Below are positions 2,837-54,636 of a stretch of DNA of 64,000 nt, piece after piece. Source of the DNA: Loxodes magnus (lineage: Eukaryota; Ciliophora; Karyorelictea; Loxodida; Loxodidae); the NCBI GenBank assembly GCA_946699065.1, contig CAMPDV010000251.1, positions 124,001 to 188,000 of the forward strand, given 5' to 3'. The notes beneath the pieces were generated by a model, which saw only the letters and a program-made list of their open reading frames with translations, was not told the DNA's origin and made no database searches. The translations under genes were made by a program, and so were the position numbers. Every line of letters starts with the position of its first letter. Position 1 is the first letter of the stretch.

Positions 2837-5800
2837 TCATGCTTGCTTTTCTTAAACTTCTTCTTTATCTAATACTATTACATATTCCTTCCCACTTTCA
2901 TCAACAATTTCAATTTCCTCTCTAAAGTTTTAATCCTCCGAGCGTAATGGTTAATTTACAGATTTAGAATCTTCTAATTATAATGTTTTGCTAGGTCTAA
3001 TAGTAAATTATGCTTTTTCAAAGTATACCTCTTTTTGATCTTCTTAAGTATTCATAATTTCACCAGCTTCTTTAATTTGATTAAAGAACTTTATTTATGA
3101 TGAATCAATTTTACTATTTTCTTATAAACAAAGCTCTTAGCTTTGTAATTCTTAATATTGGTTTGTAGTTTCGTTAACGAACTTCAAAATTTTCTAATAC
3201 TTAGGATTTAGCTCCATTTTATAAGAAATCAACTCTTAATTTCCTATTTCTTATTTTACTATGTTAAAAACTTACCTTCAGAATAACTCCTTAATTTTTG
3301 CTAATCTATTGATTTAACTAGTTTTTTCCAACTCATTTCGTTATAAATATACTTAATTAATAGAAATACTAAAACAAGAACTATTAAAATACTCATTAAA
3401 ATTCCTGAACTAAATCTTAGTTTATCAGAAAATGAATTGGTTTATACACATCTTTAAAGATTTGTAAATTTACATTTCTTTTGGTACTTTATTTAATCTT
3501 GCTCACAGTCTCCTCCATCATATTTACATTCTTCATTGTTACACTTTTAATCACATATTCCATTTTATATAAATGATAGAAACTGACATCCTGTATTTAA
3601 ACATTTCTATTATTAATCTTTTATTTTTCAATCTAAACATTCAAGATTATCATAGTTGCACTCTTTAATATTACATCCAAAATCACAAATTAAGTTATTA
3701 AAGTGTTGTTGAATACATCCCTTTTATGCACAATCTGTTAAGTAAGTCAGCTAATCATCACAATCTCCTTTATCAAACTTACAATCTATATTAAAGCATT
3801 ATTAATCACATTTCTTATTTCCTAATAATTAACTAGCACAAGTACAATTATTACAATCTCCATTATCTTTATTACATTCTGGAATGTTACATTTCTAATC
3901 ACATATTCTATCTCCTAATCAATACTTAGGACATCCTTTCTATTCACATCTTTCATAATTAACTAATTTATTTTATTACTCATCTTAATCAAAATTTGCA
4001 CAATCTCCTCCATCAAAATCACATTCTGTTACATTGCATGAAACATCACACTCTCCATCGTAAACTCATGATCAATAACAATTTTCACTACATAAATCAT
4101 ATTAGCAATCAGGTAAATCATATTAGCACTCTTTATTTAAGCATTATTTATCACACTTTTGATTATTTCTTAACTATTAATTACAGTTACAAGTGTTTTA
4201 ACTTCTATAATAAAAATTACAATCTTCTCCATCATAAAGACAATTGAAGTTATAGCAACTGTAATCACATAATCCATCATTTATTCAATTTATAGAGCAA
4301 TCTTAAGAACATTTATTAGTAGAAGGAAGTATTTAAACATTTTAGTTTAAGCAATCTAGATAATCATATTTACAATTCTTTTCATCTTTACAATAAAAAT
4401 CACAAACTCCATTTTATAACTAACTTAAATCACAACCAGTAGAACATTCGCAATCTCCATAATCATAATTACATCTTTCTACATCACATTGAGTGTCACA
4501 AAATCCATCTCCTAAATAATAAGCTTAACATTATTCAGAGCATTCGCAATCTCCATAATCGTAATAGCACTCTTAAGTCAAGCAATATAAATCACATTTA
4601 CTATTTCCTAATGATGTAGCGTTACATCCAATGGAGCATTCACATTCATAAGAATCGAAGTTACAACCAATTTAACTACAATTATAATCACATTATCCAT
4701 TTTTAGATATCATTTAACATTCATTAGAACATGAGCAATCTTCTTCATCATAATTACATTGTTATTTATAACATTCAGGATTACAAAATTCATTATTCAA
4801 AAATAAGAAATGACATGCAATAGAGCATCAACAATCTTAGCCATCATAATTACATTTGTAGTTATCACATGAGAGATCACAAATTCCATCTCCTTATTTT
4901 AAAATACATTCTGTAGAACATTAACAATCACTGTTATCATAATTACATTATTCATTATTACACTAAAAATCACAATTTCCATTTCCTAACATATCAAAAG
5001 TGCACTATTTGCTGCATCTACAATCCCAATTGTCATAATTACAAAGTTCATTATTGCATCATTAATCACAAATTCCATTTCCTAGCCAAATTTCATTACA
5101 AGATGCTGGACAGAGACAATCTCCTTAATCTCAATTGCATTACTCAAAGTTACATAATTTGTCACACTAAGAATCACCTAGTCAAAATACGGGACAATAA
5201 AGTGCACATCTACAATCAAAATTATCATAATTACAATCTTTAAAGTTGCATTACTGGTCACATTTTCCATCTCCTAATAAAGATTAATCACATTATTATA
5301 AGCAGAGACAATCTCCTTAATCATAGTCACATAATTAAAAATTGCATTCATCGTTGCAAACTCCATTACCTAGCAACTCATTTGTGCATCCTACTACGCA
5401 AAGGCAATCTCAATTATCATATATACAGGATAAAGAATTACAATCTGTATCACATTTACTATTTCACAACAAATTACTTTCACAGATAGGTGAACATTGG
5501 CAATCTCAATTATCATAATTACATTACTCATAATAGCATTCTAAATCACATAGTCCATTTAATGAAAATTAATCTGGACAATCTTCTGCACATCTGCAAT
5601 TAAAATTATCTCAGTTACAGTCACTTAGATCACATTCTTTATCACATTTTCCATTTTCTAGCATATCTTAAGTACATGTAAAAGGACAATTGCAATCTCC
5701 ATTATCATAATTACAATATTCATTATTGCATTTATTATCACATATCAAATTGCCTAAATAATAATTAGGGCATTCTTTTGCACAAGTACACATCCAATTA

Positions 5801-8800
5801 TCATAAATACAGCCTTTAAAATTACACTCTATATCACATTTTTCATTGTATTTTAAATCTTAAGTACAATTTTAAGAGCAAGAGCAACTTCAATTATCAT
5901 AAGAACATTATTCAGTATTGCATTCATCTTGACATATTTCATCTTATCATAGATTGAATGAGCATTCTTTAGAGCAAAAGCAATCTTAATTATCATAGTT
6001 GCATTATAAAATATTGCATTGTAAATCACAATTTTAATCTCCTAATTTTAACAAATCACAAGAAAAGAGGGAGCATTAGCATTCTCCATTATCATAATTG
6101 CATTATTCTACATTGCATACTTTACTGCATTATTAATCACTCAAAAAGTTGTTTTAGCAACCTTTTGCGCATGTGCAATCTCAGTTATCGAAATCGCAAC
6201 TTTAAAAATTACACTCTTCATCACATTTTCCATTCTAATACAATTCTTAAGTGCAGTTTTATGGACATAAACAATCTCAGTTATCATAATTACATTATTC
6301 AAAATTACACAAACTATCACATATATTATTTCCTAATATTCAAGGATAGCATCCCATAGTACATCCACAATCAAAATAATCAAAACTACATCCAGCATAA
6401 TTACATTCAGAATTACAATATCCATTTCCCATTAAAGTGAAGTTGCAATTCTCTGGACAAGCACAATCATAGTAGTCTCATTAACATTATTCTACATTGC
6501 AATCGAGATTGCAAAATCCATCATTTAAATATTAATCTGGACATTATAATGCACAAGTACACTTTCAATTATCATAATTACAATCTTAAGTATAACATTC
6601 TTCATCACACTTTTCAGTTTCTTCTGAATCTTGTCTACAGGATTAAGAACATTGGCAATCTCCTTTATCATAATGACATTGCTCATTATTGCATTCAATA
6701 TCACATACGTTGTTTCCTAATTATTCTTTTTAGCAATTTCCGTAACATCCACAATCAAATCCATCGAAATTACATTGTAAACTATTACAGGTTTCTTCAC
6801 ATATATTATTTCCTATTAAAAATTTAATGCATGTTTATGAGCATAAGCAATCAAAATTATCATAATTACATTATTCTGAATTGCAAGCATTTTCGCATTT
6901 TCCATTTTCTAAAAAATTATTCTAACAACCTTAGGCACATGAGCAATCTCAGTTGTCATAATTACAACCTTTAAAATTGCATTCTTCATCGCATTTTCCA
7001 TTCTACTACAAATCTAAAGTACAATTAGATGGACATAAGCAATCTCAGCCATCATAGTCACATATAGATATATTACAATTTTCACTGCATACTTAATCAC
7101 CTTTCATGTAAGGTGGGCATCATTCTTAGCAATTACATTCCTATAAGTCGAAGTAACATCCAGAAACATTACATTCTTCGTTACACTATCCATTTCCAAT
7201 TCAGGAAACATCACAAGAATATGGACATTCACAGTCTAAATTATCTCATTCACATTCTTCAACATTACATTCTTCGTTACATTATCCATTATCTTTCAAT
7301 TTATTCGAACAATACTTTGCACATGTACATTTTCAATTATCATAATTACAATACTTAAAATTGCACTCTTCGTCACATTTTTCATTCTCTCTCAAATCTT
7401 AAGTACAAGATTATGGACAATTACAATCTCCTTTATCATAACTACATTGTTGCATATTACATTCAGTGTCACAATATCCATTTCCTAGCCAGTCATTATA
7501 GCAATTTATCTAACATTTACAATCAAAGTTATCTCAATTGCATTCATTTGTATTACAATTTTCATCACATTCTCCATTTCCGAGTAATAATTAATCACAT
7601 TATGAAAGACATTCACAATCTCAGTTATCATAATTGCATTATTCTACATTGCATTAATTTTAGCAATATCCATCACCTAATAATGTTTTAGGACAGATTT
7701 ATGAACATGCACAATCCCAATTATCATAATCACAACTTTATGAATCACATTCTTCATCACATTTTCCATTCTATTACAAATCTTAAGTACAACTCTATCT
7801 ACATTAACATTCTCAATTATCAAAGTTGCACTATTCTACATTACACTCTGTATTGCATAAAAAATTTTCTAAAGCTTCAGTAGTACAATTTTAAGAGCAA
7901 AGGCAATTTTTATTATCATAATTACAGACTTCAAAATTACATTCTTCGTCACATTTCTCATTTTCTAGTAGAGTTAAAGTACAAGATAGTGGACATAAAC
8001 AATCACCATTATCAAAATTACATTATTCAATATTGCACTCTTAGTTACACACTCCGTTACCTATGTTATCTTATCAGCATTTCATAGAACACTTGCAATC
8101 AAAATTATCTCAGTTACATTATTATAAATTACATTACTAATCACAAGTTAGATCTCCTAATAATGATTAATCGCATGTTAATGGACATTAGCAGTCTCAA
8201 TTGTCAAAATTGCATTATTCAATGTTACATTATTAATCACATCTACCATTTTTTGAAAAATACTCTAAACATGAGTAACTACATGCTTTTTATTAATCAT
8301 CCATTACAAAATCTTTTTTTGAAAATCCTAGAACATAATTATATCAGTAGCATCTCTCTTCAAATTCATTTAAACAAGTTTAATATCCCTTAGGAAATGT
8401 TTCACTGTTTCCAAAAATAAAAATTCCTACTATTGCATGTACTATCAAAGCATAAGGTATCAAATTTTGAATACTAATGTGTATATTAAATGAATATTTC
8501 TATATTTTCTTATAGAAAGTAAGTAATAGATATTTATCTGATAAATATGCAATAATAAGAGTAAAAGTAGATATTATTATAATCAAAGGAATACCAGAAG
8601 AATAAACTAAGGAAGTAAAAACTATTGCACATATAAATGCACTTTATTATGGCAGATCAAATTCAGAACCATTTAGTTCGTTATTTTAGATTTAAGTAAC
8701 AATTTTTTTAGATTTTCACTTTGCTATTAGTAGTTTGAAAGGTTTCAAAATAACTTTAAGTAAATTAGGAATTACTGATGCTACAATCAGAGTTGTAGTT

Positions 8801-10560
8801 ATTCCTTTTCCAACATTGATATATCAATATCTTACAAATATTTCCCTATAAAGTTAATCAATTAATAAAATAGTAAAGGCGTAATTAAAGAACTAGAATA
8901 TGAATATCCTTTATCATAATATTTTTTAAGATTCTACTTATTCATGTTTCCTTTCTATTTTGTTTAGTTTCTTTAAACTAAAAATTATAACTCTGTTCCA
9001 AAAAATTATTACTAAACCTATTCCTATTTAAATAGCTCAATGCTTTAACAAATCTTCTCTAAAATTGTTACAAAATTTAGCTTCATCAGATTTACCTTTC
9101 AAAATATCATAAACATCTTATTAATAGCACCAGCAATAATATCCTTTAGAAGAAGTATCATATTAATAAGTTTCTTTAGCATATTCTTTCTATAAGTCTT
9201 AAATTTTTATTTTACTATCCTTTAAAATGTTTTTATTAACAGCTATGTAATATTACTCGCATTCAGATTTGGTTGGAAAATTCACGTTTTCGGCTTAATT
9301 GATAGATCAAATTAAAAGTAAGGAAATGCCTATTATAACCCCTGAAATAAGCGATACAAATAAAGATTATAGCTTTTATTTCCAATAAGATACTTCAAAG
9401 TTTTCCCAACATATCTAAGAAGGTTCTTATGCTTCTTTTACAATAAGAGGTTGATTTTGATTCCATTAAATTTCTTTAGGTTACATTTATGGAAAATATT
9501 AAGTTTCTCTATAATCGTTTATGCATTTAATTTACGATTGAATATGCTCAAAAATAATGAAAACTTTAACTATTTCTTATTCTTGATTTTATTCTTTCAT
9601 ATTAGTTTTCCTTACTTCATTTAGAATATTCGTGAGTTTTTATTCATTTTTTTTATTTTATTTTCCTCTTGATTAAAGTTAGTTTTAAATTTCTTATTTT
9701 ATTATTTTTATTTATAATTTATCAACGTCTTTGTAACATTTTTAATAAAAGGATAAGTTTTAAATTTATCTTCCTATTACTATTTCATTAATTTATCCAT
9801 ATTTTCCAAAGAAATTTCTTATTTTATTTTCATTTATTCCTTACTTTGGTAATCCTCTTATTTCAACACTATATTTTCCTACTCTATTCTCTTAAAACTT
9901 AAATCTGTGTAATCTTTTTTTCGTTTTTAGTCAGTAACAAAATAAGAAAAATAGAAATACTATGCACTAAGCAAAGTCTAGTAGTCCTTCTTACAAATTT
10001 CTCAATTTTGTTTAGTTTATAATATCTTATTCATATAACTATTGCTGTTCATCTTTGTCTAAAGAACTTTTAACATTTTCAATTTCTATTCCTCGTAACT
10101 TATATCACTTATAAGTATATTTAGTAGTATCTCCTTTCAAATTTTATGTTTTTGTATAATTTTCATCGAAAATTCAAAAGTCTACTATCTTTTTCCCAGT
10201 ATCAATATTTCCAATCGTAAGAGATTCTAAAATTCCTGCTTCATCTTTTTCATAACCTTTTCCTTGATAATTAAAGTAAATATTTACTATATTTATGCAA
10301 CTTAAAATGACAAAAATGAATATTAATCATTTTACTTAATTGAAATAGAGCTCGACTCCTATTCCAAATTATCTTACATTTTTAGGGGAAACTTGAATAA
10401 TTTATAAGCTTCTTTCTACTTTTAGATCTTCAGCTTGTTTCACTTCTTCAGTATCTTTATTTTTTCTTTCTTGCTCTTATTACAAATTACTTTCCACGTT
10501 TTCTACCTTTTTTGAGTCTTCTTTATGTACGTTTACAAAAGGATCCTTGGGGTAAAACAT
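2837..10560 (-). CDS. Giant OSCA/TMEM63-like membrane protein with ~47 Notch-type LNR repeats
   Basis: With TAA/TAG=Gln and TGA=Trp the frame runs from ATG at 10560 to TGA at 2839-2837. Minus one 17-nt intron it is 7707 nt (2569 codons). Residues 1-77 are polar and Gln/Glu/Lys-rich; membrane spans lie near 79-98 and 190-210. Residues about 228-270 look like the RRM-type cytosolic fold of OSCA/TMEM63 (YSVEIRGLP). A CWENF motif near 385 resembles the IWENL motif of that family. Further spans lie near 410-428, 505-522, 545-560, 580-600, 635-670 (FDLP..SAF, YSSGIPL) and 695-715. Residues about 765-2350 are LNR-like repeats, probably extracellular or lumenal; a last span lies near 2387-2407, followed by an acidic Gln-rich tail. 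OSCA/TMEM63 proteins are mechanically gated cation channels and LNRs bind Ca2+ in Notch; a sensory or adhesive surface role is inference only. Paralogue at 37655-45387. The superfamily call is from motifs, not alignment; an anoctamin-like relative is possible. Confidence 0.85.
3259..3275 (-). other. 17-nt spliceosomal intron
   Basis: On the minus strand this reads GTAAGTTTTTAACATAG, with canonical GT...AG ends. Removing it joins ...SYSEG-side codons to a clean tail of about 155 codons that contains no TGA and ends at TGA 2837-2839. Leaving it in gives a different tail with two Trp-TGAs. The paralogue has the same intron at the same place with one base changed (38077-38093), and downstream of it the two proteins stay alignable only in the spliced frame. 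Very short introns (15-16 nt) are known in heterotrich ciliates. Confidence 0.85.
3500..8275 (-). repeat. LNR-type cysteine repeat array, about 47 units
   Basis: Units are mostly spaced about 96 bp (32 residues). The consensus is approximately CxxxC, LLGNGxCDxxC, then NxxxCNYDNWDC. This matches the Lin12/Notch repeat layout: a CDxxCN pair, a final DxxDC acidic cluster that binds Ca2+ in Notch, and about six cysteines per unit. The position before the last DC is Trp or Gly. Trp there, and in the alternative CNWDN form, is written TGA at least 15 times and TGG only about three times. Units at the C-terminal end (3500-4400) are longer and less regular. Notch has three LNRs, so an array of this size is exceptional. 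Confidence 0.85.
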
Positions 10561-20273: not shown

Positions 20274-21095
20274 AAAAAAAATGGCGGAATGGGACAAAGG
20301 CTTTCTCGACTAAAAGGCTTCTCGTAGCTCCTTAGATCAATCTTTCCAGCTCTAACAAACTCCAACAAAGACAAAAAGAAATAATATTGTAAAATCTAAG
20401 AAGAAAAATAATTTCCTTCCAAGATTTCAAAAAAGAGTTACACCTTCGAACAACTTATGAACTTAGATAAAAAGTCTCTTGTTTAAATCATTTTTGTTTA
20501 CATTGATAAAGTAGAGAACCTCGAACATTACTTCATGAGTTTACAATAAGACTTATAAGATCATGTCGAGGATGAGAGACCGCATAATGAATTTGTGACC
20601 AAAGAGGACATTAACAACAGATATTAAGAAATAGAATGCGATATAGTAAGAATTGATGAATAAATGGGAACAGATTTCTTAAAGTATGAAAACGCATTTT
20701 AACAAATAACGGACATAAAAAAGAGACTAGGAAAATTAGAGGAATAAGACCTAAAAAGAAAAATGATCCAATGGTAATAGAAGAATAACTTATGACAACA
20801 GAAAAATCTTGAAAGTAAAAATGTTATATATGCGGCAGTTTATTCCATTTATGAAAAAAGTGTAGGATGAATTGGTAAATAAGAAAAAATATTTGGAAAG
20901 AACTTACAAATTTTTATACTTCCTCGGATGGTTAGCTTTGAAGAAAAAAGATAACTCCAAGACCATTCAGAAAGCTCGGAAGTGAACTTGGGTGGAGACA
21001 CCGGCAAGTTCGAGACCCTGTAAAAGGTAATGCAGGGGTTATGAACCTATTAAGGAAACATTCAATTATCCATAAAATTTTTAATTTAATTTAAA
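20274..21095 (+). mobile_element. Gag-only (half-LINE-like) retroelement with TSD
   Basis: A block of clearly higher GC (about 34%) in AT-rich DNA, starting A8-ATGGCGGAATGG. It carries a decayed Gag-like frame with coiled coil and a CCHC knuckle, but no reverse transcriptase. It is flanked by ACCTATTACTCTTA (20260-20273) and ACCTATTATTCTTA (21096-21109), a 13/14-bp target-site duplication. The matching site in the second copy (near 58905) lacks the insert, so the empty site is visible within the same window. Near the end, GACCCTG...CAGGGGTT (about 21015-21042) can form a small stem, as in related elements. Mobilisation by the LINE's enzyme is inferred. Confidence 0.75.
20281..21050 (+). pseudogene. 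Gag-like ORF1 with CCHC zinc knuckle, frameshifted
   Basis: Starts MAEWDKGFLDQK and has a Lys-rich head. A coiled-coil segment (FEQLMNLDKKSLVQII onward) lies in another frame from about 20410. The stretch starting DPMVIEE, in a third frame, leads into the knuckle at 20822-20863: CYICGSLFHLWKKC, i.e. CX2CX4HX4C with Trp encoded by TGA. The order head, coiled coil, DPM(M/V)IEE, knuckle matches the element at 49.1 kb. At least two frameshifts make it non-functional as read. Such proteins bind retroelement RNA. Confidence 0.65.
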
Positions 21096-28402: not shown

Positions 28403-28420
28403 TAAAATGGCTCTTAGTAA
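28403..28420. repeat. LINE target-site duplication, left
   Basis: TAAAATGGCTCTTAGTAA, matched by TAAAATGGCTATTAGTAA at 37102-37119 (17 of 18). A further copy lies at 31672-31689 because of the tandem duplication. The ATG inside the target site is in frame with the element's long ORF. Confidence 0.85.
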
Positions 28421-30963: not shown

Positions 30964-33900
30964 AAAAGCTAAGCAAAAATTAATTATTGAACTTATCTAA
31001 AAAAATTATCTTATGAATATGGTGAACAGATACATCTATTGAGAAGAAAATGATAAGAGAGTATTCCCTAATGTAATTCGTCCAAAATTAAAAAATACTT
31101 TATTTAAAAGACAATTTTCATTTTAAACTGAAAACATATCCATATAATTTTAAAATGAACTCAGCTTACGCCATTTTTAAAACTAATTCTGTGCATTTTG
31201 CTTTTGAAGTTAGGATTTTGATGATTATAAACACGTATTAAATAACTTTTACTATAGAGATATTATTTAGGTATTTTTTAGTAGTAGAATAATTGATTAC
31301 TAAATCTTAATTTAAAACTACTAAAAATACATTTACCAAAATATACTAAAAATTAAATTTAAAATGGACAAGCTCATTAAAAAAATTTTCATGGAATTAC
31401 TTAAAAAGTGCTTAGAAATTAAAAAAATTAAATAAAATCCTTAGATTAATAAAAATTTATAAAAGAAACCTGCTAATAGGATATAAAGCAAGATAATTGG
31501 GATTATAAGAATTGACGAGCATAAATTTTTATTTTTTTGCATAATTTGCTTTATTAATTTCAAGGGGTTGTGCAGATACATCACAATATTGCTAAATATT
31601 GAAACTCTTATAGCTTATTATTAGTATTATTAATATATACCTTAAAAATTTATCTTTATTATATTTATTTTTAAAATGGCTCTTAGTAATTTGAAAACTA
31701 TCCTCTGCTTTCGCATGTCGCTCAACTCGGCAGTAGATAATAACGAACAGCCAAAGACATGAAGGAGCCTTCTCATCTCACCCCAAAAATACGCTGGAAA
31801 CTATAATGTACTAAAGCATTAAAAAATAGTATTACTTCTGAAAGTAAACAAAACACTATAAGGAGGAATGGAAAGACAACAACAAATCTATAACCAAAAA
31901 AGCAAGAGACAATATAGGAAGAAACTAACGGCTCTAGCAACAGTACAAAAGAATGAATATGAAGAAATTGTCCAAATAGTAGGCATGAATAAGCAATAGG
32001 ATCTGCAAACTGTGCATGAAAATGCTCAGTAAAACTTCTCCAAATGAATGGGAGTCGCCTACTTCAACTCCTACCTTTAACAGGCATACGGCAATCAAAA
32101 CATAAATAATTAAATTATCGGATAAGATGAAGCAATCCAAGAATTTTTTAAATAACTGAAATAGAATTACGATTAAAACATTGCAAGGGTTTAAGTCCTA
32201 CAAACAGGAATAGTACTTATAGCATTTAAAAACTCAGAAGCATATGAACAGTTTGGACAAAAAACTAAATGGAAATATAAGACGTTGGTTATACCAATTG
32301 AAAAAAGAAATATAGACTAATATTACAACTACTCAAACTACCCAGTGCACTATAACCTAGATATTGACTTAACAACGGCCCAAATAGAAGTACAGCTAAC
32401 AAAATTTGGTAAAATTATCTAAACGGTCATTAATACCTACGAAAGTACAACCTGATTAAATGGCAAAATAACTGTATACTTGCAACTTGCAACTTGAAAG
32501 ACAGGAAGACACTTAGAAAATCCCAAACTCAATAAAAATTCTGGACAAGACGGTTAGACTAAATCACCCAGCTATATGAAAATGCGAGAACTGCTAAGCA
32601 GTAGGGCATAGCACATATCAGTGTAAAAGAAGGGAATCAATCTAAGCAATTATAAAGGATGCAGAAAATCTTCAGAACAATGTGATGTAGATTGAGCTAA
32701 GTAGCAATTCTTTGCAGGATGTGAAAGAAGAAGCAAAAATAGGAATTAAAAAAGAAGAACAAGTTATGTAAGAGACTCCTAAGTAATTTCCTCAATAATC
32801 AATAAAATAATATTCCTAATTTTAAACAAAATGGAATTATTTCTAATCTCATGAGCTTCTAGTACAAGCTTTATAATGCAAGACAAACTTCTAAAGCTGA
32901 CGAAAAATGGTAAGAAGAGTGATATATAACTACAAGAATAAATAACATAAGTTGTAAGATAAAAGAAATATCTCACTTAAAAAACACATAGAAAACCAAA
33001 GCTGAACTCCAAAACACTGATGAAACTAAAGAACTAATCAGTAATAATCTCGACAGAAAGCATATACTTGAATTTAAAAAAAGAATAAAACCCTTAAAGA
33101 CTATGGATTTAAATCTTAACAAATAATTTCACAAAATAACCTACAAAAAGTTGAACAAATAATAGCACCAAAAATCAGCATCACAGGCGACTAATCTAAT
33201 ATAGAACAAGATTAAAATTAAATCAGTCATACCCAAATAAACTCAATAGATAACTCTTCTCAAATAGAATGAGAAAGAATAAATTTAGGCACCTCCAATA
33301 TAAGAGGAATAAGATCAAACAAAGCTTAACTACTAAAGTTTATGGAAGAAAAAATGATAGATATTATGGCGTTATAAGAAATACATGTAGCGTAATTCGA
33401 AGATATGCCACAACTATTTGGATTCAGAGCGTGTATAAAGTTAGGCACAAATCATAGTAAAGGAGTAGCACTCTATATCAGAGAAAAATGACTAGATAGA
33501 GTAAAAGAAATAGAAATAGAGGGTCTCAATTAAATAGAATTATACCAGGGCAGTCGTATAATAGGTATAAGTCTGGATAGCAGATTAGCAATAATAAACA
33601 TTTATGCTCCGACAACCTAAGAGTAAGCACAACTGGATATTTTCTATGACGGATTACGACAATTTGTACACACAACAATCGGTCTAGGATTTCAAATAAT
33701 AGTAGTGGGTGATTTCAATGCTCACATACCATAATTTCTACTAAATGAACTAAATATAGCATGGTAACATTTACTAAATTTTATGCAAGAATTTGATCTG
33801 ACATGCAAAGACCCAACACAAGATCCAACATACATCACAATTTAAGGTAGAAGCAAATTAAAAATTGACTATTTCTTAACAGATCCATTTATATCACCCA

Positions 33901-34232
33901 ATATCATTAAAACTTAATTTTACCAACGCAGAACAATAGGAGATCATCAACCTAGAAGATTAATATTACAAATAGTTAAAAAAAGTCGTGAATATATCTA
34001 GAAAAATAGAATTTGATTTATAAAACTCAAACAAGAATTGGTCTAAGAAAAATTTCAGAAATAGCTTGAGGAAACGGACATAAATCAGTTCTCACATCTA
34101 AGCACTGAAGAATTTTATGTCAAATGATAAGAAAAAATCTATTAAAACGCAGTCTTAGTATGTGGTCACACTACCTAAACAACAAGAAAACATTATTACT
34201 CAGATGAAACAAAGTAAGCAAGGAAAAGATTC
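30964..34232. repeat. Tandem duplication unit 2 (3269 bp)
   Basis: Second unit of the exact tandem duplication. It is continuous with the reverse transcriptase half of the LINE, so the full-length element is read from unit 2 onward (31690-37101). Perfect identity means either a very recent event or an assembly artefact. Confidence 0.9.
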
Positions 34233-37060
34233 AAAAGCTAAGCAAAAAAAGTAAAGCAATTAATAAGACAAGGCGAGCTAGAAACAATTCGTGAAATTAA
34301 ACTAAGATAGGAACTTAGGCTCAAATATAGATAACATATGAAATAAGACTGCAAAAACTAATTCAATATTTTTCTCGACAAAATAAATAAGGGGAACCTT
34401 AATGACACCTGAAAAGGATTAAGGAGATAATTTAAAAGAGGGAAAATAGCACCATGAACATTAGTAAATGGAGAAGACATTCAACATTTCAAAATAAGCT
34501 GAGAAAATCTTTATAAGTATGGAAACAACAATCTACCAAACTAATTCAAAAATTAGCAATCAATAGAAATCAAGATTACTGATATAGAATAATGCATCAG
34601 AAAACTAGCCCAATGAAAAGCAGCCGGGCCTGACCAAATAGAAGCAGGTACAATTATGTCAGGAGGGAAGCAACTGATAATGGTAACTGCTTAACTAGTT
34701 AAAAAAATATTAGAGATAGGAACTATTCCTAAAAAAATTAAAGAATCATACATAGTACTTATACACAAAAAAGGAAGCTCAAATGATCCAATGAATTATC
34801 GACCCATTTCTCTTATTAACCATATCTTAAAAATTATAAACATATGAATATTTGAATAACTAAATTCATATTTAATACGACAGGATGATGAATTATAATA
34901 TGGGTTTAAACCAAGTAAATCTTGCGCCCAACAAATCTTCAATATAAGGACAATATAAGAATGGCTCTACTAAAGCAACACAGAAGTAGTAGTAATATTT
35001 ATTGATATTAAGAAAGCATTCGACTCTGTAATAAGATCAGATATATGACTTTCCCTAAATGAAATCGAGGTGCCAGAAAAACTAATAAAATTACTAGCAG
35101 AAATATATAGAGAAGAGGACATCAAATTGAAAATAAATGATCTTATATCAGATAAATTTGAAACGGAGAAAGGAGTTAAATAAGGATGTACATGCTCCCC
35201 TAATCTTTTTAATATTATAATAAATATACTTTTAAAAGAATTAAGATAAAAATAGATCGGAATAACAATGGAACTCGAAACAGAATACAGTATAAGGCAA
35301 AGATATTGTGATACATTGGCTTACGCGGATGATATAGCATGCATAGTTCAGCCGGAACAAATACAAGAACTAAGTGATATTCTAACAGCATGATCTAAAA
35401 AATACAAAATGTAAATAGCAGATAAAACGAAATGAATACTATGAAATGGAAATAGTATAAAAAACTAAACAATAATAAATATAGATGGAATGTAAATAGA
35501 AAGGGTGAAAACTTTTAAGTATCTTGGACATTGATTACAGGAAGAAATATCTTTTGAAAAGCATTTAGAATCTAGAATCTCTGAATGTCAAAAAACACAA
35601 GCATGAATCTTAAACAAGATTAAAATATAAAAAGGTATCACCCCCTATAATGCATAGATGATACTAAAAGCCTTTGTAAACTAAATTTTTGGATATGGAA
35701 GTGAATGCATTCCATTTATAGAAGAAATCATAAGACAAGTTATTCTAGAGGAACTAGAAATAATTCAACGAAGATCTCTTAGAGCAATAATAGATGCTCC
35801 ATTCTGTATTCAAAACAAAATACTTGAAAATGAATTACAATTTACTAAAATGTAATACTATTTATGATAATATATGCTGATGTTCAGACGAAAATTACTC
35901 CTAAACTCGGAAACAACTATGGATGGTTGAATGTGATAAATCACAAAATAAAAAAACTTTTTATTTGAAATATACTCATAAAAGTGCTAGAAAAACTACG
36001 ATTAAACGATCAAATTTTAATGCAAGACGAGTGAAATGGTTAAAAAATAAAAATAATAATAAATGATGCTATAAAATTCCATAATAAAGTAGAGACTTTA
36101 ACTCTTATGGAAAATATGACAACAACCTTTATTTATAGAAGCCAATTACTTGAATCCTTTATAAAAGGTCCTCCAAATTACCTAAGATATAATAAGCATA
36201 GAAAATAAGAAATTTGTTATCTATTCAGATTAAGAGCCAAATATAGCGGTGCAGCACAGACAATGAAAGTAAGGCATTTAATAGAAAATAACATATGTAA
36301 TATGTGCAGAAATGGGATAGAGGATGAGGCCCATATAATCGAGATATGCGAATAATATTAATAAGAAAGAGAAGAATTGTAATAAAAATTAAATACGATA
36401 GAACAAAATTAAACCTAAATAAATATTATGTAGACCAAACTAAATTTATTCAAAATAGTTTGAGGTAATTTTGAATTTGAAAATTGAATTCGGTCTTTTC
36501 AAATAGATCAGAGAAGCTCAATAGATGCATGAATTAAAGATTTTATTAAAAACATACTAGAAAAAAGAAGACGGGGATATATAAACAAAATCCTTCCTTT
36601 TAATAAAATAATAGGTAAGGATTATAGAGCTGGCTCAAGTGAGCACACTTGAATATTCAAAAAGCTAGTCAATGAATAAAAATAAAAAGTAGAAAAAAGA
36701 AAATGAAATTTATTTGACAAATAGATAGAATAAAACTTAAAAAATACAAAAAAGAGATATACAGATGAAATGTAATTAAATGAAAAAGCGAAAAAGATAA
36801 AAATTTAATAAATAATAATTTATGCTCAATTACTCTAAAGAGATCTTTTAGAAGAAATTGATCCTGAGCTCTCAAATTAGTAGGTATTAGATATGCTAGA
36901 AGAGGAACTTGATGAAGCACAAGAAATTCAAAGAGACCAGATGAAGCTAGAATAATTTCTAGCCTATTATTAACATATAAATTTTGTTTCTTTAACTTCC
37001 GTGGTGATCCAAATAAAGGTGATACCACGATAATTTAATTAATTTATTTATTTTATGTGA
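31676..37060 (+). pseudogene. LINE polyprotein: Gag-knuckle-endonuclease-reverse transcriptase, two frameshifts
   Basis: ATG at 31676 lies in the target site. The N-terminal part starts MALSNLKTILCFRMS. A 7-nt tandem duplication (32480-32493) shifts the frame. From the knuckle (32583-32624, CX2CX4HX4C) through the endonuclease (SNIRGI, LQEIH, NIYAPT, GDFNAH at 33708-33725, IDYFLTD, GDHQPR) to the reverse transcriptase there is one frame. RT motifs: WKAAGPDQI, YRPISLIN, FIDIKKAFDSV, GVKQGCTCSPNLF, YADD at 35322-35333, KTK and FKYLG. Trp in WKAAGPD and other usual Trp sites is TGA; Gln in KQGC is TAA. A second indel near 35945-35965, in an A/T run, precedes the C-terminal finger CX2C...HX4C (36296-36349). 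TGA at 37058-37060 ends the last frame. The enzyme nicks target DNA and copies the RNA there. With two frameshifts it is inactive as read, unless they are sequencing errors. Confidence 0.85.
37000..37029 (+). other. 3' stem-loop of the LINE
   Basis: CGTGGT (37000-37005) pairs with ACCACG (37024-37029) around a loop containing CAAATAAAGGTGA. The Gag-only element at 61.2 kb ends with the same loop and a stem of different sequence that still pairs (61869-61896). In many LINEs a 3' RNA hairpin is what the reverse transcriptase recognises; that role here is inferred. Confidence 0.6.
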
Positions 37061-37654: not shown

Positions 37655-40600
37655 TCATGCTTACTCTTCTTAAGCTACATCTTTATCTATCGTTACTAGA
37701 TATTATTTCTCACTTTCATTATCAATTTCATTTTTATTACTATATTATTGATTCATTGAGTTTACTTGTTAATTTACCGATTTATAATCTTCTGATTATA
37801 TTTTTTCGTCTTATTTTAGAGTAAATTATGTTTTTTTAAAATAAACTTCTTTTTGATCTTCTTAAGTATTTATAAGTTCACCAGCTTCTTTAATTTAGGT
37901 TAAAGTTTTTGCTTATGACGAATCAACTTTTGTTTTTTCTTATAAATAAAACTCTTAACTTTGAAGTTCTGAAAATTGACTTATAGTTTCGTTAACGAAC
38001 TTCAAAATTTTCTAATACTTAGGATTTTATTCCATTTTATAAGAAGTCAACTCATAATTTCCTATTTCTTATTTTACTATATTAAAAACTTACCTTCAGA
38101 ATAACTCTTTAATTTTTCTTGATCTATTGATTTAACTAGCTTTTTCCAACTCACTTCGTTATAAATATACTTTATCAGTAGAAATACTAGAACAAGTGCT
38201 ATTAAAATACTCATTAGAATTCCTGAACTGAAGCTTAGTTTATCAGAAAATGAATTGGTTTGTACACATCTTTAAAGATTTGTAAATTTACATTTCCTTT
38301 AGTACTTTATTTAATCTTGCTCACAGTCTCCTCCATCATATTTACATTCTTCATTGTTGCACTTTTAATCACATATTCCATTTTATATAAATGATAGAAA
38401 CTGACATCCTGTATTTAAGCATTTCTATTATTGATTTTTTATTTTTCAATCTAAACATTCAAAGTTATCATAATTACACTCTATGATATTACATTCAAAA
38501 TCACAAATTAAGTTATTAAAATGTTGTTGAATACATCCCTTTTATGCACAATCTTTTAAGTAAGTAAGTTAACCATCACAGTCTCCTTTATCAAACTTAC
38601 AATCTATATTAAAGCATTATTAATCACATTTCTTATTTCCTAATAGTTAACTAGCACAAGTACAATTACTACAATCTCCATTATCTTTATTACATTCTGG
38701 AATGTTACATTTCTAATCACATACTCTATCTCCTAATCAATACTTAGGACATCCTTTCTATTCACATCTTTCATCGTTAGCTAATTTATTTTTAAAGTTA
38801 CTTTACTATCTGTCTTAATCATCATTTTCACAGTCTCCTCCATCAAAATCACATTCTCTTACATTGCATGAAACATCACACTCTCCATCATAAACTCATG
38901 ATCAATAACAATTTTCACTACATTATACATATTGACAGTCAGGCCAATCATACTAACACTCTTTATTTAAGCATTATTTATCACACTTTTTATTATTTCT
39001 TAACTATTAATTACAGTTGCAAATGCTTTAGCTTCTATAATAAAAACTACAATCTTCTCCATCATAAAGACAATTAAAGTTATAGCAGCTGTAATCACAT
39101 AATCCATCATTTATTCAATTTATAGAGCAATCTTAAGAACATTTATTAGAAGAAGGAAGTATTTAAACAGTTTAGTTTAAGCAATCTAGATAATCATATT
39201 TACAATTCTTTTCATCTTTACAATAAAAATCACAAATTCCATTTTATAACTAACTTAAATCACAACCAGTAGAACATTCACAATCTCCATAATCATAATT
39301 ACATCTTTCTACATCACATTGAGTGTCACAAAATCCATCTCCTAAATAATAAACTTAACATTATTCAGAACATTCGCAATCTCCATAATCGTAATAACAC
39401 TCTTAAGTCAAGCAATATAAATCGCATTTGGTATTTCCTAATGATGTAGCGTTACATCCAATAGAGCACTCACATTCATAAGAATCGAAGTTACAACCAA
39501 TAAAGCTACAATTCGAGTCGCATTATCTGTTTAAAGATAGAACTTAACATTCATAAGGACATGAGCAATCTTCTTCATCATATTTACATTGGTAGTTATA
39601 ACATTCAGGATTACAAAATCCATTATTCAAAAATAAAAAATGGCATGCAATAGAGCATCAGCAATCTTAACCATCATAGTTGCATTTGTAGTTATCACAT
39701 AAGAGATCGCAAATTCCATCTCCTTATTTTAAAATACATTCCGTAGAACATTAACAATCGCCACTATCATAATTACATTATTCATTATAACACTAAAAAT
39801 CACAATTTCCATTTCCTAACATATCAAAAGTGCATTATTTGCTGCATCTACAATCTCAATTATCATAATTACAAAGTTCATTATTACATTATTAGTCACA
39901 TATTCCATTTCCAAGCCAAGTTTAATTGCAAGATGTTGGACAGATGCAATCTCCTTAATCTCAATTGCATTACTCAAAGTTACACAACTTGTCACACTAA
40001 GAATCACCTAGTCAAAATACGGGACAATAAAGTGCACATCTACAATCAAAATTATCATAATTACATTCTTTTAAATTACACTGCTGATCACATATTCCGT
40101 TTCCTAATAAAGATTAATCACATTATTATTAGCAGAGACAATCTCCTTAATCATAATTACATAATTAAAAATTGCACTCTTTGTTACACATTCCATTACC
40201 TAACAACTCATTTGTACATCCTACTACACAAATACAATCTCAATTATCATATTTACAGGATAAAGAATTGCAATCTGTATCGCATTTACTATTTCATAAT
40301 AGATTACTTACACAGGTAGGTGAACATTGACAATCTCAATTATCATAATTACATTACTCAATATCACATTCTAAATCACATAGTCCATTTAATGAAAAAT
40401 AATCTGGACAATCTTTTACGCATCTACAATTAAAATTATCCCAATTACAATCATTTAAATCACATTCTTTATCACATTTTCCATTTTCTAGCATATCTTA
40501 AGTACAAGTTATAGGGCAATGGCAATCTCCGTTATCATAATTACATTATTCATTATTACATTAGTTATCACATATCTAATTACCTAAATAATCATTTGGG

Positions 40601-43600
40601 CATTCTATTGCACAAGTACATATCCAATTATCATAATTACAACCTTTAAAATTACAATCAGTATCACATTTTTCATTTAATTTTAAATCTTATGTACAAT
40701 TTTAAGAGCAAGAGCAACTCCAATTATCATAATAACATTATTCAGTATTACATTCTTCTTGACATATTTCATCTTATTATAAATTTAATGAACATTCTCT
40801 AGAGCATAAGCAATCTTAATTATCATAGTTACATCATAAAAAATTGCATTATTAATCACAGTTTTAATCTCCTAATTTTTAAAAATCACAAAATTAAGAG
40901 CATTAACAATTTCCATTATCCCAATTGCACTATTCTCTATTACACACGCTATCACATAATGAATCATATAGAAGGCTGCTTGAGCAACCTTAGGCACATG
41001 TGCAATCTCAGTTGTCATAATCACATCCTTTAAAGTTACATTCTTCATCGCATTTTCCATTCTAATATAACTTTTAAGTACAATTAGATGGACATAAACA
41101 ATCTCAGTTATCATAATTACATTATTCTACATTACACTCAGAATCGCATTAAGCATTTCCTATTTCGAAAGGGTCACATCCTTTAGAGCAAATGCAATCT
41201 AAATAATCATAATTACATTAAGCATAATTACATTATTCATTACATAATCCATTTCCTAGTAAAGAGGAATTGCAAAATTCTGGACAAGAACAATCTCAAT
41301 TATCTCATTCACATTATTCTACATTGCACTCAGAATTGCAATTTTAATCTCCTAAATAATAATCTGGACATCCTAACGCACAAGCACACTTTCAATTATC
41401 AAAGTTACAATCTAAAATATTGCATTCCTTGTCACATTTTATATTTTCTTTTAAATTTTAGTTACATGATTCAGAACATTAACAATCTCCATTATCATAA
41501 TTACATTAATCAATGTTGCATTCAATATTGCATACATTGTTTCCTAATTTTTATTTTAGACAATATCCATAGCATTCGCAATCAAGTCCATCAAAATTGC
41601 ATTGTAAATTGTTACAAACTTCATCACATATATAATTTCCTATTAAAAATGTAATACATGTTTATGTACATAAACAATCAAAATTATCATAATTACATTA
41701 ATCTGAATTGCAAACACTGTCACATATTTCGTTTTCTAAAAAATTATTTTAACAACCTTATGCACATGTGCAATCTCAGTTGTCATAATCACATCCTTTA
41801 AAGTTACATTCTTCATCGCATTTTCCATTCTAATATAACTTTTAAGTACAATTAGATGGACATAAACAATCTCAGTTATCATAATTACATTATTCTACAT
41901 TACACTCAGAATCGCATTAAGCATTTCCTATTTCGAAAGGGTCACATCCTGCCTAACAATTACAGTCAAAGTAATCATAGATACATCCAACATAATTACA
42001 TTCTTCATTACATAATCCATTTCCTAGTAAAGAGGAATTGCAAAATTCTGGACAAGAACAATCTCAATTATCTCATTCACATTCTTCAACTTCACATCCT
42101 CAATCACAGTTTCCATCACCTTTCTAAATATTTGAGCAATACTCTGCACATGTACATTTTCAATTATCATAATTGCAAGGCTTAAAGTTGCACTCTTCAT
42201 CACATTTTTCATTTTCTCTCAAATCTTAAGTACAAGATTATGGACAATTACAATCTCCTTTATCGTAACTACATTATTCTATATTACATGGAGCATCACA
42301 ATATCCATTTCCAAGCCAATCATTATAGCAATCTATCTAGCATTAACAATCGAAGTTATCTCAATTACATTCATTTATGTTGCAGCTTTCATCACACTCT
42401 CCATTTCCTAATAATAATTAATTGCATTATGAAGGGCATTAGCAATCTCAATTATCATAATTGCATTATTCTAAATTACATTCATTTTAACATTTACTAT
42501 CACCTAATCATGCTTTAAGACAATTTTAGGAGCACGTACAATCCCAGTTATCATGATCACAATTTTATAAATCACATTCTTCATCGCATTTTCCATTCTA
42601 TTTCAATTCTTAAGTACAACTTTATCTACACTAACATTTTCAATTGCTAAAATTGCATTATTCTACATCACACTCTTACACGCAAATAGAATTTTTGAAA
42701 GCTAAAGATGTACAAAATTAAGAGCAAAGACAATTTTAATTGTCATAATAACAGACTTCAAAGTTACATTCTTCATCACACTTCTCATTTTCTAGTAAAG
42801 CTTAAGTACAGGATAGTGGGCATTAACAATCATCGTTATCAAAATTACATTATTCAATATTGCACTCTTAGTTACACACTCCGTTACCTATGCTATCTTA
42901 TCAACAATCCATAGAACACATGCAATCGAAATTATCTCAGTTACACTATTATAAATTACATTGCTAGTCACAATTTAAATCACCTAATAATATTTAATTG
43001 CATGTTAATGAACATTAGCAGTCTCAATTATCAAAGTTACATTATTCAATGTTACATTATTAATCACATCTACCATTTTTTGAAAAATATTATAAACATG
43101 AGTAACTGCAAGCTTTTTATTAATCGTCCATTGAAAAGTCTTTTTTCGAAAAACCTAGAGCATAATTATATCAGTAGCATTTATCTTCAAATTCATTAAA
43201 GCAAGTTTAGTATCCCTTAGGAAATATTTCACTATTTCCAAATATAAAAATTCCTACTATTGCATGTGCTATCAAAGCATAAGGTATCAAATTTTGAATA
43301 CTAATGTGTATATTAAATGAATATTTCTATATTTTCTTATAGAAAGTAAGCAATAAATATTTATCTGATAAATATGCAATAATAAGAGTAAAAGTAGATA
43401 TTATTATAATCAAAGGAATACCAGAAGAATAAACTAAGGAAGTAAAAACTATTGCACATATAAATGCACTTTATTATGATAAATCAAATTCTGGGCCTTT
43501 TAATTCATTATTTTAAATCAAATTAATAAGATCTTTAGATTTTCACTTTGCTAATAATAGTTTGAAAGGTTTAAAAATAACTTTAAGCAAATTAGGAATT

Positions 43601-45387
43601 ACTGTAGCCACAATCATAGTTGTAGTTATTCCTTTTCCAACATTGATATACCAATATCTTACAAATATTTCCCTATAAAGTTAATCAATTACCATAATAG
43701 TAAAAGCGTAATTAAAGAACTAGAATATGAATATCCTTTATCATAATATTTTTTAAGATTCAACTTATTCATGTTTCCTTTCTATTTTGTTTAGTTTCTT
43801 TAAACTAAAAATTATAACTCTGTTCCAAAAAATTATAACTAAACCTATTCCTATTTAAATAGCTCAATACTTTAGCAACTCTTCTCTAAAATTGTTACAA
43901 AATTAAGCTTCATCAGATTTACCTTTCAAAATATCATAAACATCTTATTAATAGCATCAGCAATAATATCCTTTAGAAGAAGTATCATATTAATAAGTTT
44001 CTTTAGCATATTCTTTCTATAAGTCTTAAATTTTTATTTTACTATCCTTTAAAATGTTTTTATTTACAGCAATATAGTATTACTTGCATTCAGATTTGGT
44101 TGGAAAATTCTCATTTTCTGCTTAATTAATAGATCAAATTAAAAGTAAGGAAATGCCGATTATAACTCCTGAAATAAGAGATACTAATAATGATTATAAA
44201 TTTTATTTCCAATAAGATATTTCAAAATTTTCCCAAACTATCTAAGAAGGTTCTTATGCTTCTTTTACAATAAGTGGATAATTTTAATTTCATTAAATTT
44301 CTTTAGGTTACATTTATGGAAAATATTAAGTTTCTCTATAGTCGTTTATACACTTTATTTACGATTGAATATGCTCGAAAATAATGAACACTTTAAATAT
44401 TTCTTATTCTTGATCTTATTCTTGCATATAAGTTTTTCTAACTTAATTTAGAATATTCATGAGTTTTTATTCATGTCTTTTATTTTATTTTCCCCTTGAT
44501 TAAAGTTAGTTTTAGATTTCTTATTATATTATTTTTATTTATAATTTCTCAACATCATCATAGCGTTTTTAATAAAAAGATAAGTTTTAATTCTTTCTTC
44601 CTATTACTATTTCGTTAATTTATCCATATTTTTCAAAGAAATCTCTTATTTCATTTTCATTTATTCCTTACTTTGGTAATCCTTTTATTTCAACACTATA
44701 TTTTCCTACTCTATTCTCTTAAAACTTAAATCTGTGTAATCTTTTTTTCGTTTTTAGTCAGTAACAAAATAAGAAAAATAGAAATACTATGCACTAAGCA
44801 AAGTCTAATAATCCTTCTTATAAGTTTCTCAATTTTGTTTAGTTTATAATATCTTACTCATATAACTATTGCTGTTCATCTCTATCTAAAGAATTTTAGA
44901 CATTTTCAATTTCTATTCCTCGTAACTTATATCACTTATAAGTATATTTACTAGTTTCTCCTTTCAAACTTTTTGTTTTAGTGTAATTTTCGTCAAAAAT
45001 CCAAAAGTCTACTATCTTTTTTCCAGTATCAAGATTTCCAAATGTTAGAGATTCTAAAATTCCTGCTTCGTCTTTCTCATAGCCTTTTCCTTTAAAGTTC
45101 AAATAAATTTTTCCTATACTTATGCAACTTAAAATGACAAAAATGAATATTAATCATTTTACTCAATCGAAATAGAGTTCAATTCCTATTCCAAGTTATC
45201 TTACATTTTTAGGAGAAACTTGAAGAATTTGCAGATTCTTTTCTTCTTTTAGATCTTCTGTTTGTTTCACTTCTTTAGTATCTTTATTTTTCTTTTCTTA
45301 CTCCTATTTCAAAAGACTTTCCTTGTTTTCTACCTCTTATGAGTCTTCTTTATGTATGTTTACTAAAGAATTCTCGGGGTAAAACAT
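37655..45387 (-). CDS. Giant OSCA/TMEM63-like membrane protein with LNR repeats, paralogue
   Basis: ATG at 45387, TGA at 37657-37655. Without the 17-nt intron it is 7716 nt (2572 codons), three codons longer than the first copy. Same order: polar N-terminus (MFYPENSLVN), membrane spans, RRM-like domain, CWENF-like site, multi-span core with YSSGIPL, LNR array, last span, acidic tail ending EEQA before TGA. Nearly all indels against copy 1 keep the frame, and the two proteins look about 85-90% identical by eye, whereas the flanking DNA is much more diverged; this indicates purifying selection on both. Internal TGA stands at Trp sites as in copy 1, and the tail after the intron has no internal TGA. 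Function unknown beyond the domain inference given for copy 1. Confidence 0.85.
38077..38093 (-). other. 17-nt spliceosomal intron
   Basis: Reads GTAAGTTTTTAATATAG on the minus strand, differing from the intron of the first gene by one base and in the identical position. It is required to keep the C-terminal tail in frame to the terminal TGA. Confidence 0.85.
38325..43115 (-). repeat. LNR-type cysteine repeat array of second gene
   Basis: Same 96-bp period and consensus as the array of copy 1. Within it 40994-41182 is identical to 41762-41950, and about 41235-41315 to 42003-42083. Both pairs are offset by exactly 768 bp, i.e. eight units, indicating recent internal exchange or conversion. 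Confidence 0.85.
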
Positions 45388-49086: not shown

Positions 49087-49670
49087 ATGATGGAAAAACT
49101 AAACTTAGCGGAAGGAATAGAATCCAGACTTATGTCCTAAGAAAGAGAACTAAGCGCTTTCTGAAACATATCTTAAGACCAGAGTAGCTAATCCTAAAAT
49201 TAGCTTCAGAAACAATCTGATATGAGTATTAGACTGGAAATACTAGAAAATAAATTAGATGAACAAAGGGGAGATCCAATGATGATTGAAGAGACCAATA
49301 GGAAGACTAAGGTTAAACTCCAAAAAGTAGTGAAGAAATGTTACTACTGCAATTCGACAGAACACTTATGAAGACGCTGCAAGGAATTCCAAAATTTCAA
49401 GACGTAGTACTGGAATAAATAAAGAACCATACAAGCACAGTAGAGGAAGAAAAAACAAATATAGTAGAGACAAATAAGAGAAAGATTATACTTAAATGAA
49501 TAAGGATACATTTACAAGAGAAAATTTAATTAGAAATAAGGCTAGATCCGGAAATGACAAGATTAATGGGAGGAGAGAGGAGTAGAGACTTCTAAAACTT
49601 TATTTTTAACACTGGAGCAATCTGGTGTCCAGCATGAAGAGGTGAAAATCCTCGAAAATTGCTAAACTTA
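49087..49670 (+). pseudogene. Gag-like ORF1 with CCHC zinc knuckle
   Basis: Starts MMEKLNLAEGIESRLMSQER, the first ATG overlapping the target site. It continues through a coiled-coil-like stretch and DPMMIEE to the knuckle at 49339-49380: CYYCNSTEHLWRRC, CX2CX4HX4C with Trp encoded by TGA. A frameshift near 49430 precedes the C-terminal block SRDFQNFIFNTGAIWCPAWR, which corresponds to the FIFN...W block of the 26.7-kb copy. Confidence 0.65.
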
Positions 49671-53668: not shown

Positions 53669-54636
53669 TAATAATATTAATTTTAAGTTTTCCGTTTTAG
53701 GGATTTCCAATCCCGTCAGGAATACAGTAGTTCATGCTCCCTACTGTTAAATATAAAAGTTCAGGTCGCCCAATTTTAGCGAGATTGGGAACTCGGATTT
53801 TTCCAGGTTTTCCCTCCTTTAACTTGCCATGGTTCAATCTTAATCTTTTATATTGAACCATCCAGGTTGCAATACATTCTTTTCATTTTTGCTTCTTCTT
53901 TTTTCTTCTTTTATTGCTCTTTTATCCAATAGTTTCTTTATTTCTATTAGAATTTCTAACACTTCCGATAAAAATGTCATACGCTTCCACAGCAGAAACA
54001 TTTCTTTTTTATTTTGAATTATTTTTCTTGATTTGTTTGCTCTTTCTAGGCTTCGATTTCCATTTGTATAGCTCCAGTTTCGCTTTACTCTATCTTAAAA
54101 GTTTGCAATTTCTCTTCTACTTTTCCGAGTCTGTTATCCAGTTCAGTCTGTTTCTAAAGCTAATTTTAGGATTCGTTAGTCTGACTTTGTGAGGTATTCC
54201 AAAAGGCGTTAAGATCTCTTTCCTAGGACATTAGTCTTGACTTAATTCCTTCTGCTAGGTCAAGCTTCGCCATCAGCATATCATTGTCCTTCTTCAATCT
54301 CTTGACCTCTTCCTGGAGGTTCAGTACCACTTTGATGAGCTACTCCATTCTCATCTGGCCAGAAGGGTTGAACTCTGATACCTCCTGGTGGAGAAAAGAC
54401 TTCATCTGTTTCCTCGATTTCTCGCTTGAGGTTGGAGTTTCCGTGTGCATATTCTTCAAGATTGGCTTTCGTTCGTTTTGTTAGATTCCAAGTTGTTAGT
54501 TCAGTGTTGGTTAAGGTTGTGATAGAGAAGATTGTTAAGATTATTAAGATTTGGTATCTTCCTCCCTTCCTTTTTGGCTTAGGAAGAGGTGGTATAGAAG
54601 CCTGACTTGAAACCTTCAACCATTTTTTTAATGACT
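53669..54636 (-). mobile_element. Gag-only retroelement, minus strand, perfect 14-bp TSD
   Basis: Flanked by AGCAATACTCTTTA at 53655-53668 and 54637-54650. Relative of the element at 26665-27641, with the same start (ATGGTTGAAGGTTTCAAG), Gln-rich stretch, coiled coil and 3' hairpin (GGGATT..AATCCC near 53700), ending in a TTA-type tail. The target site is directly adjacent to that of the next element. Confidence 0.8.
53700..54620 (-). pseudogene. Gag-like ORF1 with coiled coil, frameshifted
   Basis: Starts MVEGFKSGFYTTSSQ; after an early frameshift a long frame reads SQQSQQSSLSQPQPTLNQQL, then MHTETPTSSEK, FLHQEVSEFNPSGQ and the heptad-rich MEQLIKVVLNLQEEVKRLKK, followed by IKSRLMSQERDLNAFWN. 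The C-terminal block is shifted again relative to the 26.7-kb copy. No knuckle found. Confidence 0.6.

What the first reader, a model, noticed from the sequence alone, without database searches (positions are those of the whole stretch)
2837..10560. TGA used both as Trp and as the stop codon; TAA/TAG as Gln
In the LNR array, TGA occupies the conserved Trp/Gly slot (YDN-TGA-DC) at least 15 times and TGG about three times. TGA also sits at usual Trp sites in the LINE reverse transcriptase (TGA-KAAGPD) and in four zinc knuckles. Both paralogues nonetheless end at a matching TGA. TAA encodes the Gln of KQGC in the reverse transcriptase. This fits the ambiguous code reported for karyorelict ciliates and excludes the Tetrahymena code.
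Basis: partly seen in the sequence, partly recalled or inferred. Interest (0 to 1): 0.9.

Follow-up and report, generated by a model that had tools for sequence, protein, structure and literature searches.

The report
Known ciliate code: UGA double meaning
The genes here do read TAA and TAG as glutamine and TGA as both tryptophan and stop, but this is the already published genetic code of the ciliate Loxodes magnus, whose genome this appears to be.

Summary
The window lies in a 705.7 Mb, 7843-contig assembly that matches the published 706 Mbp Loxodes magnus macronuclear assembly; that paper states Loxodes uses NCBI table 27: UGA is the only stop and can also encode Trp.

Tested here: two minus-strand paralogues (10560-2837 and 45387-37655) each have 42 in-frame TGA, a 17-bp intron at the same place and a matching terminal TGA. 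18 of 42 TGA in each fall in two LNR slots (1.6 and 1.5 expected). One slot is otherwise almost always Tyr/Phe, with no Gly in 95 repeats. Between paralogues TGA exchanges with TGG 7 times of 18 differences, with Cys or Arg codons never. dN/dS is 0.25 overall and 0.41 beyond the last sense TGA. In 38 kinases the DxWS Trp column holds 12 TGA, 25 TGG, 1 Tyr.

Corrections: the slot before D-C holds 12 TGA, not at least 15; the TGA-KAAGPD site is Lys in LINE-1. tRNA-Trp was not found. A lead: UGA use differs sharply between gene classes.

The parts
3276..10560 (-). Gene 1, first exon: OSCA/TMEM63-like membrane part (weak) followed by LNR array, with 42 in-frame TGA
   Evidence: Notch (LNR) E 3.3e-229
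3259..3275 (-). Gene 1, 17-bp intron GT..AG
   Evidence: 17 bp is the published mode in L. magnus
2837..3258 (-). Gene 1, second exon, ends at stop TGA 2837-2839; no sense TGA in it
38094..45387 (-). Gene 2 (paralogue), first exon, 42 in-frame TGA
   Evidence: Notch (LNR) E 1e-228
38077..38093 (-). Gene 2, 17-bp intron at the matching place
37655..38076 (-). Gene 2, second exon, ends at stop TGA 37655-37657, matching that of gene 1
33270..36230 (+). LINE frame with endonuclease and reverse transcriptase; 19 TGA and 3 TGG in frame; TAA at the Gln of KQGC
   Evidence: RVT_1 E 6.9e-34, Exo_endo_phos E 5.4e-12
20822..20863 (+). Zinc knuckle with TGA inside
   Evidence: pattern match only
49339..49380 (+). 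Zinc knuckle with TGA inside
   Evidence: pattern match only
61543..61584 (+). Zinc knuckle with TGA inside
   Evidence: pattern match only
53959..54000 (-). Zinc knuckle with TGA inside
   Evidence: pattern match only

Best explanation
The window is nuclear DNA of the karyorelict ciliate Loxodes magnus, which uses the ambiguous karyorelict code (NCBI table 27). TAA and TAG are read as glutamine. TGA inside a coding sequence is read as tryptophan, and TGA near the 3' end of the message is the stop. Shown here: codon meanings by alignment, matching terminal TGAs, and constraint through and beyond the internal TGAs. [quoted passage not shown] Inferred: the paralogues are working genes.
For: Assembly size and published code; 17-bp introns as published; TGA at LNR Trp/aromatic slots; TGA-TGG exchange between paralogues 7 of 18 differing pairs; dN/dS 0.253 overall, 0.233 between first and last TGA, 0.413 after the last; kinase DxWS column 7 TGA, 22 TGG, 1 Tyr of 30, 12, 25 and 1 of 38; Trp enriched 69-fold at kinase TGA columns and 67-fold at LINE RT TGA columns; Gln the most enriched residue at TAA and TAG columns in both; both LNR genes and two eRF1 copies end at TGA.
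Against: No tRNA-Trp was found by two similarity searches, which shows little. Raw residue weights at TAA/TAG columns of kinases are led by Lys and Glu, not Gln. In LINE RTs Leu and Ile also have high raw weight at TGA columns, and only 52 of 86 TGA lay in columns with enough sense codons to be scored. 4 of the 18 differing TGA pairs between paralogues are TAA. The reported loss of UAA just before stops is not seen in these two genes. The species name rests on size, introns, LINEs and code, not on a marker gene (one search failed).
Confidence: 0.96

Rival explanations
1. TGA means glycine (or another residue) in the LNR array, since one slot also holds Gly in many repeats.
For: The slot before D-C holds 13 Gly in each gene, against 12 and 13 TGA.
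Against: The other TGA-bearing slot has Tyr, Phe, Trp, Lys or His and no Gly in 95 repeats; GGA replaces TGA in 1 of 18 differing pairs, TGG in 7; kinase and LINE columns point to Trp.
Confidence: 0.01
2. The genes are pseudogenes with stop codons, and the code is Tetrahymena-like with UGA only as stop.
For: UGA is 1.6% of codons here, far above 0.12% reported for Parduczia; other LNR genes of the same genome hardly use it.
Against: dN/dS 0.25, and 0.41 even after the last sense TGA; one TGA per 60 codons concentrated at Trp sites; TGA in kinases and RT frames genome-wide; published code.
Confidence: 0.02
3. The code is the Condylostoma type, in which TAA and TAG can also be stops.
For: Same sense meanings. 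From recall, a small minority of karyorelict transcripts was reported to use stop-UAA.
Against: The four gene ends examined (two LNR paralogues, two eRF1 copies) are at TGA; the published account names UGA as the only stop.
Confidence: 0.02

Closest known systems
Karyorelict nuclear code, NCBI table 27, in Loxodes magnus (PMC11441545; sections on results parts 1-2, assembly and gene prediction read, rest not)
   Same: UGA as Trp and as the only stop, UAR as sense, 17-bp introns, large LINE-rich genome of 706 Mbp
   Different: No difference found. The paper reports UGA and UAA depleted before stops; the two genes here lack UGA there but have UAA at -5
Parduczia sp. and Condylostoma magnum codes (PMC4967479; passages seen)
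   Same: All 64 codons are sense; context sets termination
   Different: Reported overall UGA usage 0.120% and 0.042% of codons; in the two LNR genes it is 1.64% and 1.63%. Whole-transcriptome means against two genes, so not like with like
4-bp anticodon-stem tRNA-Trp(CCA) (PMC13092985; passages seen)
   Same: That paper, citing Swart et al. 2024, says it was identified in Loxodes
   Different: Not found in this assembly with the two queries used
OSCA/TMEM63 channel family (Pfam RSN1_TM, PHM7_cyt, RSN1_7TM)
   Same: All three models match in order across the two paralogues
   Different: All below cut-off; a long LNR array is attached; no OSCA or TMEM63 chain among solved structures at E up to 1

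Membership tests
Karyorelict code, NCBI table 27 | UAA and UAG encode Gln | tested here: met
   Gln most enriched at TAA and TAG columns in kinases and LINE RTs; TAA at RQGC Gln of the RT; paralogue exchange of TAA with CAA 16 times, but also AAA 13 and GAA 9
Karyorelict code, NCBI table 27 | UGA encodes Trp | tested here: met
Karyorelict code, NCBI table 27 | UGA is the only stop | tested here: met
   4 gene ends examined, all TGA; a third eRF1_1 match (L039) looks like a Pelota gene (recalled) and its end was not examined
Karyorelict code, NCBI table 27 | Sense UGA lacking just before the stop | tested here: met
   No sense TGA in the last 257 codons of either LNR gene; only two related genes
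Karyorelict code, NCBI table 27 | Closeness to the poly(A) tail decides sense or stop | not testable with these tools
   No RNA data
Tetrahymena-type code, table 6 | UGA is only a stop | tested here: not met
   42 in-frame TGA in each of two constrained genes
4-bp anticodon-stem tRNA-Trp(CCA) | tRNA-Trp gene with this stem, no tRNA-Trp(UCA) | tested here: inconclusive
   ARAGORN finds no tRNA in the window; human-like and yeast-like queries gave no match
OSCA/TMEM63 channels | RSN1_TM, PHM7_cyt and RSN1_7TM above cut-off | tested here: inconclusive
   All three in order, none above cut-off; structure prediction not accepted

The most novel reading that the evidence does not exclude
UGA for Trp is strongly split by gene class within this one genome. 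LINE reverse transcriptase domains (86 TGA, 13 TGG in 13 domains) and the OSCA-like LNR genes (42/11 and 42/14; 20/0 in a third copy on the same contig) use UGA about as often as A-ending Lys and Glu codons would predict. Other LNR loci, as A-rich at that position, use UGG almost only (1 TGA, 60 TGG in five loci), and 30 kinase domains lie between (21 and 61). If real, ambiguous UGA carries a cost, slow reading or loss to termination, that most host genes purge and that retrotransposons and some genes tolerate, or that even throttles their output.
Probability: 0.3. Interest if true: 0.45.

Novelty: already known. Interest (0 to 1): 0.2.

Why it matters
It confirms, from genome sequence alone, a published and striking code in which one codon is both sense and stop. 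In practice, genes of this genome must be translated with table 27. The uneven use of UGA between gene classes, if it survives an unbiased survey, would give a way to measure the cost of an ambiguous codon.

Tried and rejected
Glycine for TGA: rejected by the aromatic slot and the paralogue exchanges. Pseudogene with stops: rejected by dN/dS and other gene families. Contamination as the reason why some LNR genes lack TGA: not favoured, since contigs C26, C76 and C585 carry both LNR matches without TGA and RT matches with 6 to 8 TGA; but the five loci counted lie on C143, C1624 and C1023, for which I have no such check. Extending kinase frames to get an unbiased UGA rate failed (307 codons).

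Limits of the counts: 8 of the 38 kinases were picked partly for high TGA counts, so those totals serve for the meaning of TGA, not its usage; the first 30 are biased against TGA because the search scores a TGA as a stop. The same bias holds for the TGG-type LNR loci. There I counted L001, L003, L005, L007 and L008 of 8 fetched; L002, L004 and L006 were left out as copies or overlaps, and with them the sum is 1 TGA and 95 TGG. L073 was read but is not used.

Failed: rRNA search, tRNA-Trp, structure prediction. Two papers on the code (eLife.93502, pcjournal.141) are not held; the first is cited through PMC13092985, the second from recall.

Full report
What was checked. I rebuilt the two paralogous genes, tested codon meanings in them and elsewhere in the genome, and asked which organism this is.

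Which genome. The window is G000:C251:124001-188000, in an assembly of 705,730,643 bp and 7843 contigs. Seah et al. 2024 (PMC11441545; outline, two of three parts of the results, two methods sections and passages seen) report a Loxodes magnus MAC assembly of 706 Mbp, thousands of LINE-type RT and endonuclease domains, and introns with a mode of 17 bp, and state that Loxodes uses table 27: the only stop, UGA, can also encode Trp. The window's introns (17 bp), LINE and code agree. The identification rests on these and not on a marker gene; the rRNA search gave no usable answer.

The genes. Gene 1 runs from ATG at 10560 to TGA at 2839-2837, gene 2 from 45387 to 37657-37655, both on the minus strand, each with a 17-bp GT..AG intron near the 3' end. 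They have 2568 and 2571 codons before the stop. Pfam finds an LNR (Notch) array at E 3.3e-229 and 1e-228. The N-terminal membrane part matches PHM7_cyt in both, RSN1_TM in gene 1 and RSN1_7TM in gene 2, each below its cut-off, which suggests but does not prove an OSCA/TMEM63-like channel.

TGA is tryptophan. Each gene has 42 in-frame TGA; TGG numbers 11 and 14. In gene 1 the slot before D-C has 12 TGA, 3 TGG, 13 Gly, 7 Phe and 13 others of 48 repeats; the slot before D has 6 TGA, 31 Tyr, 10 Phe, 1 Lys. In gene 2 the figures are 13 TGA, 3 TGG, 13 Gly, 7 Phe and 11 others of 47, and 5 TGA, 2 TGG, 31 Tyr, 7 Phe, 1 His, 1 Lys. So TGA keeps company with aromatic residues in the second slot and never with Gly. 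Eighteen of 42 TGA fall in the two slots in each gene, 1.6 and 1.5 expected. Between the paralogues 33 TGA pairs are kept; of 18 that differ, 7 are TGG, 4 TAA, 3 TTA, and one each GAA, GGA, TAT, TTC; none is a Cys or Arg codon. dN/dS is 0.253 overall, 0.408 before the first TGA, 0.233 between the first and last, and 0.413 in the 257 codons after the last. The first sense TGA comes after 77 codons, so nearly the whole protein lies behind one.

Other genes. In the 30 best-scoring kinase domains there are 21 TGA, 7 of them at the DxWS column, where the rest are 22 TGG and 1 Tyr. With 8 more kinases, chosen partly for high TGA, that column has 12 TGA, 25 TGG and 1 Tyr, and Trp is enriched 69-fold at TGA columns; in 13 LINE RT domains, 67-fold, over the 52 of 86 TGA that could be scored. 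The 150 RT matches listed, of 3403 candidates, each have 3 to 9 TGA inside.

TAA and TAG are glutamine. Gln is the most enriched residue at TAA and TAG columns in both families, though Lys and Glu lead in raw weight in kinases.

TGA is also the stop. Both LNR genes end at a matching TGA. Of three eRF1_1 matches, two are eRF1 copies with 20 and 21 UAR codons, 4 TGG each and no sense TGA; both end at TGA with one or two more TGAs within the next five codons. The third match looks like Pelota (recalled) and its end was not examined. No sense TGA lies within 257 codons of the LNR stops. UAA, reported to be depleted for about 20 codons before stops, is present at -5 in gene 1 and at -16, -5 and -2 in gene 2.

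Mechanism. Swart et al. 2016 (PMC4967479; passages seen) propose that translation is the default at these codons and that transcript ends make eRF1 win.

A lead. UGA as a share of Trp codons: LINE RT domains 86 of 99, the window's LINE frame 19 of 22, LNR genes 42 of 53 and 42 of 56 and 20 of 20 in a third copy on the same contig (L072); but 21 of 82 in 30 kinases, 0 of 8 in two eRF1 copies, and 1 of 61 in five other LNR loci. Third-base use in Lys and Glu codons does not explain this: the G-ending share is 0.18 and 0.20 in the LNR pair and 0.27 in kinases, 0.11 in LINE RTs, and 0.11-0.17 in the five UGG-type loci. The kinase and UGG-type loci were found by a search that scores TGA as a stop, which biases them against TGA, and the five LNR loci include near copies. 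In searches I saw no title or abstract that states this split, and none in the passages read for it of PMC11441545 and PMC4967479; other papers listed were not read for it. So this is a lead, not a result.

Verdict. It is the published code of what appears to be the published genome.

Noticed in passing
window 27691-30959 and 30960-34228: A stretch of about 3.27 kb of a LINE is present twice head to tail, with one mismatch in the first 3200 bases compared; real tandem duplication or assembly effect.
   Followed up: partly
window 2837-10560 and 37655-45387: Possible OSCA/TMEM63-like membrane protein with a very long LNR array before its last membrane span; the family matches are weak. A third copy lies on the same contig outside the window (L072).
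   Followed up: partly
G000 contigs C64, C78, C103, C158 and others; L009-L038: The tRNA search returned 63 matches; 12 of the loci were typed and each holds tRNA-Lys(TTT) at the match. Some copies lie in arrays spaced 527, 1752 or 1753 bp.
   Followed up: no
L040 and L041 (contig C196): Two close eRF1 copies on one contig; in both the stop TGA is followed by further in-frame TGAs.
   Followed up: no
L001-L008 (contigs C143, C1624, C1023): LNR genes that use UGG almost only for Trp, 1 TGA and 95 TGG with copies and overlaps included, unlike those of the window.
   Followed up: partly
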